A stretch of DNA of 7,788 nt from T1SED10-198M sp003554345 [NCBI: Candidatus Sumerlaeota bacterium] (GTDB taxonomy: Bacteria; Sumerlaeota; T1SED10-198M). The position numbers were made by a program, and so were the translations under genes. The stretch lies in the NCBI GenBank assembly GCA_003554345.1, contig PWGE01000450.1, positions 1 to 7,788 on the forward strand, read 5' to 3'. Below the pieces are notes generated by a model. That model was not told where the DNA came from and did no database searches. It was given only the letters and a program-made list of their open reading frames with translations. Below are positions 1-6,354 of the stretch, in pieces. Each line of letters opens with the position of its first letter. The stretch's first letter is position 1.

Positions 1-308
1 CCCTGGTTGGAAACAGTCAGGGTATACATTTCTGTTTCTATGGTTACTGTTTCTTCAGGGACTCTTTCAACCTCAGGAGGGTCGGGTTCAGGGTCTGGTT
101 CCGGCTCCGGTTCGGGGTCTGGTGTCGGCTCTGGTTCTTCCGGTGGTTCCGGTTCTGGAAAGGGTTCTTCAGGAGGATCTACTTCTTCCGGTGCTTCTTC
201 GGCCGGAGGCGTGGGGGGATGTTCCGGAGGTGGTGCCACTCTCTGGAAAATCATCAGGACAATAAAGGCAGATATAATAAAAAGTATCATGCGTTTTGAT
301 TCACTCAT
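1..308 (-). CDS. yidC: YidC-like membrane protein insertase, N-terminal part (cut by window edge)
   Basis: The minus frame from ATG at 308 stays open to the window edge, giving 102 residues. It begins MSESKR, followed by one hydrophobic segment (about residues 7-22) that would anchor the protein in the inner membrane. Residues 25-80 are an extreme Pro/Glu/Asp-rich linker (PEPEP- and EPDP-type repeats). From about residue 84 it reads EETVTIETEMYTLTVSNQG, which resembles the first strands of the periplasmic P1 domain of Gram-negative YidC, where a 'V.T....T....GG' pattern follows a signal anchor and variable linker. YidC inserts and folds inner-membrane proteins, alone or with SecYEG. The conserved C-terminal transmembrane core lies outside the window, so the call rests on N-terminal architecture only. 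A GGAGG lies 13 nt upstream of the ATG, a long spacing, and no in-frame alternative start is closer to it. The gene has its own promoter. Alternative: another signal-anchored envelope protein with a proline-rich spacer. Confidence 0.68.
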   Translation of the reverse strand, partial: MSESKRMILFIISAFIVLMIFQRVAPPPEHPPTPPAEEAPEEVDPPEEPFPEPEPPEEPEPTPDPEPEPEPDPEPDPPEVERVPEETVTIETEMYTLTVSNQ

Positions 309-333
309 CGTACAAACTGCGCCTCCGGTTTTT

Positions 334-355
334 TTGAGAAGAGAAGAATTCTCAA
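334..355 (-). promoter_or_regulatory. Hairpin in predicted yidC 5' leader
   Basis: The arms TTGAGAA (355-349) and TTCTCAA (340-334) are exact reverse complements, separated by an 8-nt TTCTTCTC loop. The loop itself carries another TTCTC, so GAGAA can instead pair with the nearer copy to form a 5-bp stem with a 3-nt loop. The structure lies between the predicted transcription start and the GGAGG site. It is A/T-rich and short, so a regulatory role is only a possibility. Confidence 0.25.
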
Positions 356-367
356 TATTGAACCAAC

Positions 368-395
368 AGTATATCAAATAGCCAGCAGTTTTCAA
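368..395 (-). promoter_or_regulatory. Sigma70-type promoter for yidC
   Basis: Reading the minus strand, a -35 element TTGAAA (395-390, 5 of 6 matches to TTGACA) is separated by 16 nt from a -10 element TATACT (373-368, 5 of 6 matches to TATAAT). The -10 is preceded by TGA, giving an extended -10 (TGnTATACT). Transcription should start near 361, leaving a leader of about 50 nt before the ATG at 308. It is the best promoter match I found in the intergenic region. No experimental support is available here. Confidence 0.6.
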
Positions 396-672: not shown

Positions 673-2085
673 TTACTTCTCAGGTCTTAAGAAGGTGACA
701 GTGACACCCTGCATGCGCGGTATGAATCGAATCGTACTAAAGTATTTACGGGTGTTGAGGAAATGAGGAAACATATTCCCGGTCTTTTCTGGCAGGTACT
801 TTTCAAACTTGTTGTTTTCAAGAAATTTATTGACAGGATGTTCGTTTTCTTCTTTCAGAATGGATGATGTGATATAAACCAGTTGTCCTTTTTCAGAAAC
901 AAACTCTGCTGCTTCCTCCAGCAGTTCTCTTTGTAATGTCATTAATTCCCCCAGTTTTTTTCTGCTGAAGAGAAGTCGCTTTTCAGGATTTTTATCCAGG
1001 TTTCCAGTACCTGTACAGGGCACATCAACTATTACGGTATCATATTTCTGCTTCCCGGAGTCCCCTAATTCTTTGCGGCTGACTGTCTGAATATTGCTGA
1101 ATCCGGCTGCACGGGCCCGTAATTTTACTTCTTTTACCATATCTTCTTTGTGTTCGGTAGCTGTTATTGAACCCTTGTTATGCATACATATTGCGTAACC
1201 CAGTGTTTTACTGCCGTATCCTGCACAATAGTCCAATACGCTGGTACCCGGTTTGGGATCGACACACTGGACTGCCAGCTGAGTGGCATCATCCTGTATT
1301 TCGAAAAGTCTTTCCTTATAATCTTTTAGTTCATGCACATCATGTATGCCACGTATATGGATGCCCCACTTGTTGAAGGGACTTTTCCGGGCATTTATCC
1401 CGGCGCTTTGAAGTCTTTTTAACATTTTCTCTCGAGTGATGGCCGAGAGATTTACCATCAGATGGCGGGTTTGATATTTTTCAATAAAATCAGAAGAGGG
1501 CGGGCGAGTTCTTTCTGTAACAGAAAGATAGTTGTTTGAGAAAAAACGGATATCTTTTACCGGTAATAAACGAAGGAGTGAATGAAGAAAATGGGGGGAG
1601 TACTGGACCTTAAGGGTCTTAAGCAGTTCCATCTTTGTGCCCAGTTGCCAGCCGAGAGAGAGGGGGTCCTGGCCTTTACGATATTTCTGGCCCAGTGAAT
1701 GGTAAGCATCTCTGCTTTTATGGAGCATTGCTATAAGTTGATCCAGGTTGAAATCAGGGAACAGATGAAGCTGTTTGACTATTTTCATGGTGTAATTTGT
1801 AGAGTAATCAAGAAGCGTGTGAACAGTAAGAACCCAGGCAGAATACACCTTTTCCTGCAATTCAAAACGAAATTGTTTATGAACAAGGTCAAAGCGGTAG
1901 AAATAGTTTTCAACAGCCCGGCTCAGAAAGGAGCAGACCCATTTTTCTTCCGCTGTTCCAAACGTGTGCTTTCGAATAAGCAGGGCTAATTCTTTATCTG
2001 TTACCGGAGGGTTTTGAAGGCGCTCTTGCAGATAGTCGGCTAAAAATCTGGCCCAGTAATTGGAAGTTATTCGGGGCTTGTTCAT
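673..2085 (-). CDS. rsmB: RsmB/NOL1-NOP2-Sun family rRNA methyltransferase homologue, altered active site
   Basis: This 470-residue protein belongs to the RsmB (Fmu/Sun) family, whose E. coli member methylates C967 of 16S rRNA at C5 using S-adenosylmethionine. The first ~200 residues are mostly helical-looking and probably replace or resemble the NusB-like RNA-binding domain. The C-terminal half carries the Rossmann methyltransferase: FEIQDDATQLA (261-271, family 'FxxQDxAxQL'), motif I DYCAGYGSKT (285-294), motif IV DVPCTGTG (354-361) with the release cysteine C357, and motif VI VYITSSILKEEN (403-414). The family motif VI is normally TCS, with the cysteine as nucleophile; here residue 407 is Ser (codon TCA). 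The C357-to-S407 distance of 50 matches the distance between the two cysteines in E. coli RsmB (C325, C375). Motif I is also unusual, since the common AAPGGKT is read as AGYGSKT. The length is slightly above the E. coli protein (429). The start overlaps the RNase G stop as ATGA and has an AGGAG site 7 nt upstream. It may be a non-catalytic RNA binder or an enzyme with changed chemistry. Confidence 0.85.
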   Translation of the reverse strand: MNKPRITSNYWARFLADYLQERLQNPPVTDKELALLIRKHTFGTAEEKWVCSFLSRAVENYFYRFDLVHKQFRFELQEKVYSAWVLTVHTLLDYSTNYTMKIVKQLHLFPDFNLDQLIAMLHKSRDAYHSLGQKYRKGQDPLSLGWQLGTKMELLKTLKVQYSPHFLHSLLRLLPVKDIRFFSNNYLSVTERTRPPSSDFIEKYQTRHLMVNLSAITREKMLKRLQSAGINARKSPFNKWGIHIRGIHDVHELKDYKERLFEIQDDATQLAVQCVDPKPGTSVLDYCAGYGSKTLGYAICMHNKGSITATEHKEDMVKEVKLRARAAGFSNIQTVSRKELGDSGKQKYDTVIVDVPCTGTGNLDKNPEKRLLFSRKKLGELMTLQRELLEEAAEFVSEKGQLVYITSSILKEENEHPVNKFLENNKFEKYLPEKTGNMFPHFLNTRKYFSTIRFIPRMQGVTVTFLRPEK

Positions 2086-3524
2086 AAAGGTTCTCCTGTT
2101 TCAAAATGAAGATGTTCTGTAATATCAAACTCGGTTTCTTGCAGGGCAGGGGATAGTTTTAGAGTAACTGAGATGTTAAAATTTTCCGTGAGATCCTCAG
2201 TCATTTCCTGAAAAAGCGGTTGAAAACCGGTAGGAATATACAGTAAAAAATCAAAGATATTTTGTATTTCATAATAGTGAAGAATAACGCGGCGAACCGC
2301 TAAGGCCTGGAAAAAAGCATTGGGATAATGGCCACTGCCTTTACAACACGGACATGTTTTAAGAAAAACCTGCTTTAAGGAAGAGTGCTTTCTTTTTCGT
2401 ACAATCGTCATTAAACCCACATCATTGACTCCGATAACTTCTGAAGGAATAAGACTTTTCGCAAGTTCTTCTCGCAAAAGGGCGCAGACTGTTTCGATTT
2501 CCACTTTCTTTTTCAGGTCGATAAAATCGATCACAATTAAACCCCCCAGGTTACGAAAACGAATCTGACGGGCTATCTGAACAGCGGCTTCCCTGTTGAT
2601 ATGATCGGCGGTAGCCTGTAATCCTTTTTTTGTTCCTGAAAAACGTCCTGAATTGACATCAAGTGTTGTCAGGAAAGGTTTTTCACTGATAAGAATATAC
2701 CCTCCTGAAGGAAGCCAGCACTTATTTTTAAGTGAGAGCTCGATGGCTCTGTTTATCCCATATTTTTCAAAAAGATCTGTCCGCTTTTCATAATGAATAT
2801 CGGGCTTTTGACTATCAGGTATCTCTGCAAAGTGTTCCTGTACCTCCTGGTAAAGTGCCCGGTTATCAGTATGTACAGCTTCGAAAAGAATACTGGCGGC
2901 ATCACGGAGCCAGAAAAAAATGTGGCTTTTATCCTGGTGCACCAGGCCGGGCTTTTTTTTCGTTTCCAGCTTTTCTTCGATTGCCGACCATTTTGCCTGC
3001 AACTTTTTCGCTTCTTCCAGAAGTGTGCTGTCATCCAGATTAAAAGCAGCAGTACGGGCAATAAAACCACCCTTTTCAGATGACAGGTTCTCTAAAAGAG
3101 AAAAGAGTCGTTCACGTTCTTCGCCTTCTATCTTCCTGGAGACTTTTTGAAAAGAGGTATAGGGAAAATAAACCAGGTATTTCCCGGTAAGGAAAAATTC
3201 ATTGGTAAGCTTCACTCCTTTTTCAGGAGTTTCTTCTTTTTGAACCTGAACAAAAAGTCGTTCACCGGCTTTAAAATCCTGACATCTGTCTTTTTCCGGA
3301 AGAAAGAGGTAGCCATTTTTATCCCGTCCAATATCCACAAATACCGCCTGTAAGCCAGGCACAACGTTGTCCACTTTTCCCAGGTAGATATCTCCGATAC
3401 GGGGTTTATTACTTCGTGTCCAGACATACAATTCCACGGCCTGGTCTTCTTCGAGAAGGCAGATCTTTTCTTCTATATTATTTCTGGAAAGGAGGAGGGT
3501 GCGGGACAGTGTCGGTTCGTTCAT
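2082..3524 (-). CDS. rng: Ribonuclease G (RNase E/G family endoribonuclease)
   Basis: This 480-residue protein is close in length to E. coli RNase G (489). RNase G is a cytoplasmic, metal-dependent, 5'-end-sensing endonuclease that matures 16S rRNA and turns over mRNA. An S1-like RNA-binding region spans about 38-115 (RIGDIYLGKV, LQAVFVDIG). The 5' sensor/RNase H-like part includes GGFIARTAA (152-160). The two metal-binding aspartates are visible in LTTLDVNSG (D289) and GGLIVIDFID (D333), with spacing like D303/D346 of RNase E. The zinc-link motif is CPCCKGSG (C391 and C394 in the CxxC positions), preceded by a KRKHSSL stretch. The long disordered C-terminal scaffold of RNase E is absent, which favours RNase G. 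The gene overlaps both neighbours by 4 nt (ATGA) and has no strong Shine-Dalgarno site of its own, so its translation probably depends on the upstream radical SAM gene. Nothing indicates truncation. Confidence 0.95.
   Translation of the reverse strand: MNEPTLSRTLLLSRNNIEEKICLLEEDQAVELYVWTRSNKPRIGDIYLGKVDNVVPGLQAVFVDIGRDKNGYLFLPEKDRCQDFKAGERLFVQVQKEETPEKGVKLTNEFFLTGKYLVYFPYTSFQKVSRKIEGEERERLFSLLENLSSEKGGFIARTAAFNLDDSTLLEEAKKLQAKWSAIEEKLETKKKPGLVHQDKSHIFFWLRDAASILFEAVHTDNRALYQEVQEHFAEIPDSQKPDIHYEKRTDLFEKYGINRAIELSLKNKCWLPSGGYILISEKPFLTTLDVNSGRFSGTKKGLQATADHINREAAVQIARQIRFRNLGGLIVIDFIDLKKKVEIETVCALLREELAKSLIPSEVIGVNDVGLMTIVRKRKHSSLKQVFLKTCPCCKGSGHYPNAFFQALAVRRVILHYYEIQNIFDFLLYIPTGFQPLFQEMTEDLTENFNISVTLKLSPALQETEFDITEHLHFETGEPL
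2093..2097 (-). promoter_or_regulatory. Ribosome binding site of the rsmB-like gene
   Basis: AGGAG lies 7 nt before the ATG at 2085, inside the last codons of the RNase G gene. It supports the chosen start. It also shows that this gene has its own initiation signal despite the 4-nt overlap, unlike the two genes before it. Confidence 0.6.
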
Positions 3525-5962
3525 AAAGCAATTTTTCTTTTGTTAAAATTTAAAAAGAGCTGTACTTTACGAACATAATATGGTGTATCACCTTTATTTA
3601 ACAGGGAACGAAACTTTTTTTTGGGGCCTTCTACATCAATTTCAAAAATATTCGATGATGGCCGGGATACAGCCTGAATGCTATCATCATGAATTTTGCG
3701 GAAATCTTCTTCAGCAATGAGAGGATCCTTCTCAAAAGTGGTACGGTAACGGCTTACTATTTTTTGTTTGTTAAGGTTAGGAGTGTTCCGGGGCAGAGGC
3801 AGAAGTTTACGGAATGAGTAGCCGGCGGGTGAACTCTGGTTGAGTTTTTTGAGAGATTCCCCGGGCTCTATGGGTTCGCTTAAAGGAAGTTCCAGAATTT
3901 CACAGTCACTTTCCCAGAAAATGGGAAGGGCGTCATAAAAACTTATTTTTACTTTAGGGTTATACCCCTGTGAGTAGAGGAGGGGAAGATGTGCCCGTCG
4001 AAGAATGAATTCAATGTTTCGAATAAAATCCAGGTGACCGATATAGCTTGCGGGAAAGTGTTTGGTGAGGAGTAACCAGTACCGGTAAGTTTTGGGAGTT
4101 GTTTCCATGAGATGGGCACGAGGTAGTGGTTCAATCTTCTCCCGAGAGGCGATAACATTTTTATGAGAAGGAGCGCAGGCCCCACAACCATAACATCCCT
4201 CTTTTCTGCAGGAGGGTCTTTCCTTATTTTCCTGTGAGGTATGATATTCTTCGAGAAGGAATTCTCTGTCTATACCGGCATCAATATTATCCCATGGCAA
4301 GGGGTTTTCTGGTAAGTAAGGGCGGTGTGCATCATACCCGTGTTTTTTCTCAAAATGACCGAGAATAGAGTCCCATAGTTCGGGTTGAAAGGCATCATCC
4401 CAGGTGTCCAGGTAAGCACCTTTATTGACGGCTTCCAGAATGACTTCTGAAGCCCGGCGATCGGCTCGCGCCAGGAAGGCTTCTACCCGGTTCATGGTCA
4501 GATCAGGATATTTTATTGAAACATGTTGTAATTTGCGGCATTCCCTGCGCATGGCGTGTATTATTTCAAAATAATATTCTCTGTCATGATGGGGCGCCCA
4601 CTGGAAAGGTGTATGAGCTTTGGGAATAAAAGGAGCTACAGATACGTTAATTTGATAACGCTTATGATATTGAGAGGCAATATCATTTGCTTTCCTGATA
4701 AGGGAAATAATACCTTCTATATCAGCTTTTTCTTCCCCGGGTAACCCAATCATAAAATAGAGTTTGAGAACCTGCCATCCCCTCGAAAAACAAAGTGAGA
4801 TGGTCTCAAATATTTCTTCGTCAGTGAAATGTTTATTAATTATCCTGCGCAATCTTTCGGTGCCTGCTTCCGGGGCGAAAGTAAAGCCTGCTTTGCCCCG
4901 TTGGAGCGCGGTGTCTTCAAGCTGAGTGGTGAACTTTTCAATGCGCAGAGAAGGGAAGGACAACTTTACATGATATTGCTCCAGAAAAGGAGACAGATTA
5001 CGAATTATATCAGATAAACAGGTATAATCGGCAATACTCAGGGAAAGGAGGCTGACCTCATTATATCCCGTGATGGTAAGACCACGTAAAATTTCTTCGC
5101 TGAGGCGGCGGGGATTTTTTTCGCGAAGTGGACGGTTTACATACCCTGCCTGACAGAAACGGCACCCATTTAAGCATCCCCTTGCTGTTTCTATGACCAG
5201 TCTGTCATGAACAGGCTTGATGGAAGGAATCAGGTACCATTTGGGAAAAGGACTTTTATTGATATCGAACACTCTTTTCCTGACCTGTTGTTCAGTTCCT
5301 TCTTCAACCTCATAACCCTTGAATTGACCGCTTTTATCATAGAGTGGCTTATACAGGGAAGGTACGTAAATCCCCTGAATTTTTGATAAACGACGCAGTT
5401 TTTGGCTGCGGGAAGAAGAATCTTTCTCAAGCAAATCGGCGATTTCTCCAAAGACTTCTTCTCCATCTCCGAGAATAAAAGCATCGATAAAGTCTGCATA
5501 TGGTTCCGGATTATAAGCCCCCGTGCCGCCGCCCAGTATAAGAGGATCTTTCTCGCCCCGGTCCTTTGCCAGTATGGGCACTCCGCTTCGTTCTATCATC
5601 TTTACCATAGTAGTGCAGGATAATTCTGTCTGTAATGTGAAACCGATGCAATCAAACTCTTTTCCTGGTTTTTGAAAATACAGCGAAGGAATCAAAGCGT
5701 CCCGGGATTCTAAAAATTCCATGATGGTTTGATCGGGAGCAAAAATACGGTCTACCACAAGAGAGGTTTTCTGGAGCATGTAATTGTACAGGGCATGAAA
5801 GCCAAAATAACAGGTGCCTATTTCATACACATCAGGAAATGCCAGCAATATCTTCAACTTTTCAGGGGCCCATCGCTGTCTTTTCTGACTGTATTCAGAG
5901 TCAATATATCGTCCCGGTTTGGGAAGATTATAGGATTGGAGCCAGGACAGAAATTCATTCAT
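3521..5962 (-). CDS. Radical SAM protein (TIGR03960-like) fused to a DUF2344/TIGR03936 domain
   Basis: This 813-residue cytoplasmic iron-sulfur protein is of uncertain function. Residues 1-200 resemble a B12-binding-like fold (KILLAFPDVYEIG at 37-49, LILGGGTGAYNPEPYADFID at 141-160). The radical SAM core begins near 250: RGCLNGCRFCQAG carries the CxxxCxxC triad C263, C267, C270 for the 4Fe-4S cluster that cleaves S-adenosylmethionine. APEAGTERLR (363-372) and YFMIGLPGE (402-410) are typical core strands. A second cysteine group, C585, C590, C593, C596 (C-x4-C-x2-C-x2-C), lies just after the core and could hold another metal or cluster. From about 625 to the end is the DUF2344-type domain (GHLDFIRNIEFILRRAHLPL, then YSQGYNPKVKISF). 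In many bacteria the two parts are separate neighbouring genes that sit beside RNase G; here they are fused. The start overlaps the preceding stop by ATGA and lacks a clear Shine-Dalgarno site. No substrate can be assigned; an RNA or ribosome-linked role is suggested only by the neighbours. Confidence 0.9.
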   Translation of the reverse strand: MNEFLSWLQSYNLPKPGRYIDSEYSQKRQRWAPEKLKILLAFPDVYEIGTCYFGFHALYNYMLQKTSLVVDRIFAPDQTIMEFLESRDALIPSLYFQKPGKEFDCIGFTLQTELSCTTMVKMIERSGVPILAKDRGEKDPLILGGGTGAYNPEPYADFIDAFILGDGEEVFGEIADLLEKDSSSRSQKLRRLSKIQGIYVPSLYKPLYDKSGQFKGYEVEEGTEQQVRKRVFDINKSPFPKWYLIPSIKPVHDRLVIETARGCLNGCRFCQAGYVNRPLREKNPRRLSEEILRGLTITGYNEVSLLSLSIADYTCLSDIIRNLSPFLEQYHVKLSFPSLRIEKFTTQLEDTALQRGKAGFTFAPEAGTERLRRIINKHFTDEEIFETISLCFSRGWQVLKLYFMIGLPGEEKADIEGIISLIRKANDIASQYHKRYQINVSVAPFIPKAHTPFQWAPHHDREYYFEIIHAMRRECRKLQHVSIKYPDLTMNRVEAFLARADRRASEVILEAVNKGAYLDTWDDAFQPELWDSILGHFEKKHGYDAHRPYLPENPLPWDNIDAGIDREFLLEEYHTSQENKERPSCRKEGCYGCGACAPSHKNVIASREKIEPLPRAHLMETTPKTYRYWLLLTKHFPASYIGHLDFIRNIEFILRRAHLPLLYSQGYNPKVKISFYDALPIFWESDCEILELPLSEPIEPGESLKKLNQSSPAGYSFRKLLPLPRNTPNLNKQKIVSRYRTTFEKDPLIAEEDFRKIHDDSIQAVSRPSSNIFEIDVEGPKKKFRSLLNKGDTPYYVRKVQLFLNFNKRKIAL

Positions 5963-6354
5963 GGAGCTAATTTAAAGAGTCCTTTTTTCCTGCAGCTTTT
6001 GCATTGACCCATGACAAAGGTGGTGCCGTCGCTCATCTCTTGCTGCGAGATAATGGTAATGGCTGGTGACTGGCATTTCATGCAGTGTATTTTTGATTGT
6101 GAGGTTCCTTCTTTCTGTGCATTCTGTTTTTGCGATGTTACCGGTATTTTTTTCTCTTCAGCTGTTTTTCTTCTGGCTGTTTTCGGTTCTTTTTTGGGGT
6201 CTTTTTCATGAAAAACCGGTTCAGATGTGGTATGGCTGCTATTCGGTATGAATGAATTGTAATTTACCCGGGAAGTTCTGAGTTTATATCCACAGATCAG
6301 GCAATTATCCATAAAGGATTCATTATGTTCTTTACAACGGGGACACAGGATCAT
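5959..6354 (-). CDS. Small protein with two Cys4 zinc ribbons, function unknown
   Basis: This 131-residue protein has an N-terminal treble-clef/ribbon motif, CPRC at 4-7 and CLIC at 18-21. A basic, Ser/Lys/Glu-rich and probably disordered linker follows (about 25-88). A second ribbon has CMKC at 91-94 and CKSC at 118-121 and ends GLFKLAP. All eight cysteines are in paired CxxC form, so binding of two zinc ions is likely. No signal peptide or membrane segment is visible, so it should be cytoplasmic. I do not recognise a named family. The ribbons and basic linker would allow RNA, DNA or protein contact. The gene follows pilT after a 39-nt gap with GGGAG 7 nt before the ATG. It overlaps the radical SAM start by ATGA, so its translation is probably coupled to that gene. 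Position and cysteine pattern make it a real gene; the role is unknown. Confidence 0.8.
   Translation of the reverse strand: MILCPRCKEHNESFMDNCLICGYKLRTSRVNYNSFIPNSSHTTSEPVFHEKDPKKEPKTARRKTAEEKKIPVTSQKQNAQKEGTSQSKIHCMKCQSPAITIISQQEMSDGTTFVMGQCKSCRKKGLFKLAP

What the first reader, a model, noticed from the sequence alone, without database searches (positions are those of the whole stretch)
863..866. RsmB-like methyltransferase with serine in place of the catalytic motif VI cysteine
Motif VI reads VYITSSILKEEN where the family has TCS; residue 407 is Ser (codon TCA, at about 863-866 on the minus strand). In RNA m5C methyltransferases this cysteine attacks C6 of the target base, while the motif IV cysteine (kept here as C357) releases the product. 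The 50-residue distance between the two positions equals the C325-C375 distance in E. coli RsmB, so the alignment is unambiguous. TCA is two changes away from TGT or TGC, so a single sequencing error would not explain it. The protein may be a structural rRNA-binding relic, use another nucleophile, or modify by different chemistry.
Basis: partly seen in the sequence, partly recalled or inferred. Interest (0 to 1): 0.6.

Follow-up and report, generated by a model that had tools for sequence, protein, structure and literature searches.

The report
RNA methyltransferase relative missing its nucleophile
An uncultured bacterium carries an RNA-methylating-enzyme relative in which the amino acid that attacks the RNA base is a serine instead of the cysteine found in every comparable relative examined, so it probably binds RNA without methylating it in the usual way.

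Summary
In the 470-residue protein at 673-2085 (-), motif VI reads TSS; Ser407 is codon TCA at 865-867 (the given 863-866 is slightly off). Motif IV Cys357 is kept, 50 residues away. Of 138 other distinct family sequences aligned, 136 were readable at this column and all 136 have Cys. Seven columns are invariant in the others; the window protein keeps six (G291, K293, D354, P356, C357, E413), losing only the nucleophile. A second family protein in the same genome has both cysteines. The window protein fails RsmB equivalog cut-offs, shows no NusB match, and groups mostly with accessory paralogues, though one RsmB-scoring protein lies in the same clade. The gene looks intact: ATGA overlap with an RNase G-type gene and AGGAGA upstream. 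Best reading: a pseudo-enzyme or strongly impaired methyltransferase that still binds SAM and RNA, perhaps an RNA-maturation factor made with RNase G. Rivals: Cys357 acting as nucleophile as in DNMT enzymes, slow non-covalent methylation, recent decay or error. No other genome of its class is held, so conservation of Ser in true orthologues could not be tested. New variant of a known family; moderate interest.

The parts
673..2085 (-). RsmB/RsmF-family (PF01189) protein, 470 aa, P0001: low-confidence helical N-terminal part (about 1-200), ferredoxin-like part (209-250), SAM-dependent methyltransferase domain (about 259-437)
   Evidence: Pfam PF01189 100.8 bits, cut-off 27; PF22458 25.7 bits, just under its cut-off of 27; Foldseek hits to 2yxl, E. 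coli Fmu, RsmF, Nop2
865..867 (-). Ser407 codon TCA in motif VI, where 136 of 136 other readable relatives have Cys
1015..1017 (-). Cys357 codon TGT in motif IV (DVPCTG), retained
2082..3524 (-). Ribonuclease E/G family gene, upstream; its end overlaps the start of P0001 by ATGA
   Evidence: TIGR00757 333.2 bits, cut-off 325.95; overlap
3521..5962 (-). TIGR03960 B12-binding radical SAM protein fused to a TIGR03936/DUF2344 domain; overlaps the RNase G-like gene by ATGA
   Evidence: overlap
5959..6354 (-). Small cysteine-rich ORF with CxxC pairs, 131 aa, zinc-ribbon-like; overlaps the radical SAM gene by ATGA
   Evidence: no Pfam or NCBIfam match at E up to 0.001; overlap; 'zinc-ribbon-like' is my reading of the CxxC spacing

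Best explanation
P0001 is a member of the RsmB/RsmF/NSUN RNA m5C methyltransferase family, probably an accessory paralogue, that has lost the motif VI cysteine nucleophile. Shown: Ser at that column, Cys at motif IV, the other five invariant residues kept, an intact gene coupled to an RNase G-type gene, and a second family member with both cysteines elsewhere in the genome. Inferred: it still folds as a SAM-binding, RNA-binding methyltransferase domain and accepts a cytosine in the pocket, but cannot form the usual covalent C6 adduct. It is therefore methylation-dead or strongly impaired and works mainly as an RNA-binding factor, most likely in rRNA maturation together with the co-transcribed RNase G. 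This would resemble the eukaryotic relative Nop2/NSUN1, whose motif VI mutant still supports rRNA processing.
For: Ser407 against 136 of 136 Cys. G291, K293, D354, P356, C357 and E413 kept. Intact 470-codon ORF, ATGA overlap with the RNase G-type gene and AGGAGA just upstream of the ATG. Second family protein with DAPC and ITCT motifs in the same genome. Nop2/NSUN1 C513A rescues rRNA processing without methylating (PMC9561284, passages). Yeast nop2(C478A) is methyltransferase-deficient but rescues lethality, although growth is poor (PMC11121408, passages). Family-typical positions near motif IV and at the C-terminus are also changed: RR at 364-365 to DK (105 and 102 of the 136 readable rows have Arg), WR at 371-372 to LL (86 Trp, 81 Arg), G399 to K (116 Gly), D459 to Q (101 Asp) and F461 to V (103 Phe).
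Against: Keeping six of seven invariant residues, including the motif IV Asp and Cys, suggests pressure on the pocket and is compatible with residual or altered catalysis. There is no expression, binding or methylation evidence. The link to rRNA rests only on family and operon neighbour: among the stretches compared, RNase G and a family member lay together in one other genome only (L074), about 2.5 kb apart. The accessory-paralogue reading is not clean: L006, in the same clade, passes the TIGR00563 RsmB cut-off (286.6 against 269.05) and has a NusB domain.
Confidence: 0.55

Rival explanations
1. Role swap: Cys357 of motif IV attacks C6, as the motif IV cysteine does in DNMT-type DNA/RNA m5C methyltransferases, and product release is left to solvent or to Ser407.
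For: Cys357 and Asp354 are kept. DNMT enzymes lack a motif VI Cys and use the motif IV Cys (PMC6409601, passages).
Against: In human NSUN1 mutating the motif VI Cys abolishes methylation although the motif IV Cys is present (C513A). The DNMT motif VI Glu has no obvious counterpart here; this was not examined on a structure.
Confidence: 0.12
2. Slow methylation without a stable covalent adduct, or with Ser407 as a weak nucleophile.
For: The invariant pocket residues are otherwise kept. [quoted passage not shown] seen only as a reference-list entry in PMC2927531).
Against: The motif VI mutants I saw described are Cys to Ala and are inactive. Serine is chemically a much poorer nucleophile (general knowledge).
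Confidence: 0.15
3. Recent loss: the gene is on the way to becoming a pseudogene, or the codon is an assembly or binning artefact.
For: Single draft genome of 454 contigs, 87.66% complete and 4.32% contaminated. Long branch of 1.62 against a median of 0.5.
Against: Intact ORF and translational coupling; two base changes needed. The second family protein, with both Cys, has an even longer branch (2.28), so a long branch does not show decay.
Confidence: 0.13
4. Different chemistry or target, for example methylation of another atom or of a protein.
For: The SAM-motif Gly and Lys are kept. Several other family-typical residues are altered.
Against: The best family by far is PF01189, and other methyltransferase profiles score weakly. 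Pocket residues invariant in this family remain.
Confidence: 0.05

Closest known systems
RsmB (Fmu/Sun), 16S rRNA m5C967 methyltransferase
   Same: Same methyltransferase domain, motif order, 50-residue IV-VI spacing; HMMER and Foldseek hits to 1sqf/1sqg
   Different: Ser for the motif VI Cys; below RsmB equivalog cut-offs; no NusB match
RsmF/YebU and Thermus RsmF
   Same: Family fold; GSKT-type motif I as in YebU
   Different: 75.3 and 70.1 bits against cut-offs of 588 and 690; no C-terminal extension of the RsmF kind in the alignment; Ser in motif VI
Nop2/NSUN1
   Same: Same family; documented role in rRNA processing that does not need catalysis
   Different: Nop2/NSUN1 has both cysteines; eukaryotic; acts on the large subunit
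DNMT2/TRDMT1 and other DNMT-type enzymes
   Same: Cys in motif IV and none in motif VI
   Different: Different family; no DNMT-type profile among the Pfam matches of P0001 at E up to 1
Accessory RsmB/F paralogue groups of two families (f3, f5) of the same phylum
   Same: Same starred 27-row clade as P0001 (99/94); no NusB match in the four scanned (L008, L011, L013, L017)
   Different: 22 of 22 keep both cysteines

Membership tests
RsmB/RsmF/NSUN methyltransferase family (PF01189) | Profile score over curated cut-off | tested here: met
   100.8 bits, cut-off 27
RsmB/RsmF/NSUN methyltransferase family (PF01189) | Motif IV D-x-P-C | tested here: met
   DVPC at 354-357
RsmB/RsmF/NSUN methyltransferase family (PF01189) | Invariant motif I Gly and Lys (G291, K293) | tested here: met
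   invariant in the others and kept here
Active RNA m5C methyltransferase of this family | Motif VI Cys nucleophile | tested here: not met
   Ser407; 136 of 136 other readable rows have Cys
Active RNA m5C methyltransferase of this family | Makes m5C in RNA | not testable with these tools
   needs bisulfite, mass-spectrometric or radiolabel assay
RsmB (16S m5C967) equivalog | Score over NCBIfam equivalog cut-off | tested here: not met
   TIGR00563 127.8 against 269.05; NF011494 158.5 against 319. The genome's other member also fails: 126.5 and 173.2
RsmB (16S m5C967) equivalog | N-terminal NusB domain | tested here: inconclusive
   no PF01029 match at E up to 1, while L006, L012, L028, L030, L031, L034, L053, L057, L080 match over the cut-off; the genome's other member has no match either; the N-terminus is predicted helical but mostly with pLDDT under 50
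RsmB (16S m5C967) equivalog | Groups with canonical RsmB in a tree | tested here: inconclusive
   in a 27-row starred clade with 22 accessory-paralogue rows, but also with L006, which passes the RsmB cut-off; L012, the next row out, passes too; long branch
DNMT-type m5C methyltransferase | DNMT-family profile match | tested here: not met
   none among Pfam matches at E up to 1

The most novel reading that the evidence does not exclude
P0001 is a natural RNA m5C methyltransferase in which catalysis has moved from the motif VI to the motif IV cysteine, giving a living intermediate between the RNA-type (NSUN) and DNA-type (DNMT) mechanisms within one fold.
Probability: 0.1. Interest if true: 0.8.

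Novelty: new variant of a known kind. Interest (0 to 1): 0.42.

Why it matters
The motif VI cysteine was the same residue in every other readable family member examined here (136 of 136). A natural protein that keeps the other invariant residues but lacks this one is a clean test of whether the family has functions that do not need catalysis in bacteria, as shown for Nop2/NSUN1, or whether the motif IV cysteine can take over. If Ser proves conserved in the lineage, it would be a bacterial pseudo-methyltransferase tied to RNase G.

Tried and rejected
Close orthologues: P0001 was searched against 99 genomes at E up to 0.001, 40 of the phylum at 1e-28, 386 at 1e-27 and the class, each set counting the window's own genome; and by peptide patterns against genome and viral contigs. 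Nothing closer than generic family members was found; the class holds the window's genome alone. The synteny comparison covered only stretches fetched around family genes, not the RNase G genes themselves; in it only L074 had both, in a different arrangement. Another cysteine as substitute nucleophile: the protein has Cys at 51, 274, 287, 300 and 357 only, none near motif VI in sequence; nearness in space was not measured. Structure: single-sequence AlphaFold2 failed (mean pLDDT 34.4). Literature: ten searches listed no title or abstract on a natural family member with Ser at motif VI. I saw listings, and passages of PMC6409601, PMC11045063, PMC9561284, PMC11121408 and PMC2927531; most subscription papers are not held. 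The roles of the NSUN6 pocket residues could not be checked in print (nothing found).

Mended on re-check: I first held the clade of P0001 to be apart from canonical RsmB.

Rows left out of the census: hits under the Pfam cut-off; three weak rows (G016:C112, G062:C118, G065:C162) and rows without a locus and not otherwise held (G351, G320, second G306) were not fetched; loci came later and are the same five contigs as; two rows (L096, L101) end before the column. Three near-identical Ligilactobacillus rows were left out of the careful tree.

Full report
Observation. The ORF at 673-2085 on the minus strand encodes 470 residues. Residue 407 is Ser (TCA, 865-867), residue 408 is Ser (TCC, 862-864) and residue 357 is Cys (TGT, 1015-1017). 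HMMER alignments to PH0851 (2yxl), 1ixk, E. coli Fmu (1sqf) and YebU (2frx) run without a gap from motif IV to motif VI, with the Ser facing the Cys of TCS or TCT.

Family. Pfam PF01189 scores 100.8 bits (cut-off 27). RsmB and RsmF equivalog models score far below their cut-offs. No NusB domain is found at E up to 1, whereas nine of the sixteen other family proteins from other genomes that I scanned match it over the cut-off (L017 was scanned twice). With a small alignment (8 rows) AlphaFold2 gives a moderately confident methyltransferase core and a poor N-terminus (mean pLDDT 51.8). The model matches PH0851, Fmu, RsmF, Nop2 and NSUN structures.

Census. I gathered family members from the 40 held genomes of the phylum (the window's own included), from a 99-genome and a 386-genome search of relatives, and from contig scans. 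Translation and profile search gave 139 distinct sequences including P0001. Of the 138 others, 2 are cut before the column, and 136 of the remaining 136 have Cys there and at motif IV; they fall in 131 clusters at 90% identity. The sample is centred on this phylum plus one set of other bacteria, and several genomes give more than one row. Seven columns are invariant among the others: G291, K293, D354, P356, C357, C407 and E413; P0001 keeps six. Its mean identity to the others over residues 259-425 is 31.6%, the highest 42.3%. Other family-typical residues are changed: Arg364-Arg365 to Asp-Lys, Trp371-Arg372 to Leu-Leu, Gly399 to Lys, and the Asp and first Phe of the C-terminal DGFF motif; the alignment at the C-terminus is less certain. 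So the protein is divergent around the active site, conserved at the invariant pocket positions, and lacks the nucleophile. In a wider set of 25 columns conserved at 85% or more it keeps 19, the genome's other copy 23, and two of 134 other rows fall as low as P0001, 0.76.

Genome context. The window is a whole contig (7788 bases) of a draft genome of 2.55 Mb in 454 contigs, 87.66% complete. The genome has a second family protein on another contig (L002:481-1887, 468 aa) with DAPCSGLG and YYITCTL, so both cysteines. It too misses the RsmB cut-offs and shows no NusB match. With an incomplete genome a third copy cannot be excluded. In the window the order is PilT-like ATPase, small Cys-rich ORF, TIGR03960 radical SAM protein, RNase E/G protein, P0001. 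The last four are joined by three ATGA overlaps, and AGGAGA stands just upstream of the P0001 ATG. This is what an expressed, maintained gene looks like; it is not proof.

Descent. In a maximum-likelihood tree with column 407 masked (71 rows), P0001 lies in a 27-row clade (bootstrap 99, SH-aLRT 94). It holds two paralogue groups of families f3 and f5 of the phylum (10 and 12 rows), one fragment from family f15 and three proteins from outside the phylum; the genome's other protein lies elsewhere (the quick tree of 74 rows gives the same 27 rows). Scanned members of the two groups (L008, L011, L013, L017) have no NusB match and miss the RsmB cut-offs. Genomes such as G012 carry, besides one protein of each group, a third member with a NusB domain close to the RsmB cut-off (L080: 237.8 against 269.05). 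Against a purely accessory clade, L006 in it passes the RsmB cut-off and has NusB, and so does L012, the next row out. P0001 is a long branch (1.62, median 0.5), so its exact place is uncertain. The other copy, with both cysteines, is longer still (2.28), which shows that long branches in this lineage do not by themselves mean loss of function.

Mechanism. In NSUN-type enzymes the motif VI Cys forms the covalent adduct at C6 and the motif IV Cys helps release; in DNMT-type enzymes the motif IV Cys attacks (PMC6409601, passages). Human NSUN1 C513A (motif VI) is inactive but restores rRNA processing (PMC9561284, passages). Yeast nop2(C478A) lacks methyltransferase activity yet rescues lethality, with a severe growth defect that a second change at the other active-site Cys suppresses (PMC11121408, passages). 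On this basis I judge P0001 most likely to be an RNA-binding, SAM-binding factor without normal m5C activity, working in rRNA or other RNA maturation beside RNase G (0.55). The step from 'nucleophile missing' to 'RNA-binding factor in rRNA maturation' is inference. Residual non-covalent methylation, a switch to Cys357, recent decay or error, and other chemistry remain open.

Verdict. A real and, in this sample, unique substitution of the nucleophile in an otherwise preserved set of invariant residues; a new variant of a known family. Whether it is a conserved pseudo-enzyme or a one-off cannot be decided until a second genome of the lineage is found, which is why interest is moderate.

Noticed in passing
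L002:481-1887 (+), G000 contig C20: The genome's other RsmB/F protein keeps both cysteines but carries an extra stretch before motif IV that splits the Pfam match in two, lacks a NusB match and has the longest branch in the tree (2.28).
   Followed up: partly
3-395 (-): Cut-off ORF with a hydrophobic stretch followed by a long Pro/Glu repeat (PEPEPEPDPEP), TonB- or periplasm-spanning-like by eye; it runs off the contig end.
   Followed up: no
3521-5962 (-): TIGR03960 radical SAM protein fused to a TIGR03936/DUF2344 domain, of unknown function, directly before an RNase G-type gene.
   Followed up: partly
L008, L026, L076, L077, L083, L087 and others (group A): A paralogue group of the phylum reads EET instead of EEN after motif VI and DAPC[LM]G in motif IV; 10 of 10 keep both cysteines.
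   Followed up: partly
L108 (G346): A family member lies in divergent orientation next to a TIGR03960-type radical SAM gene in a genome outside the phylum.
   Followed up: no
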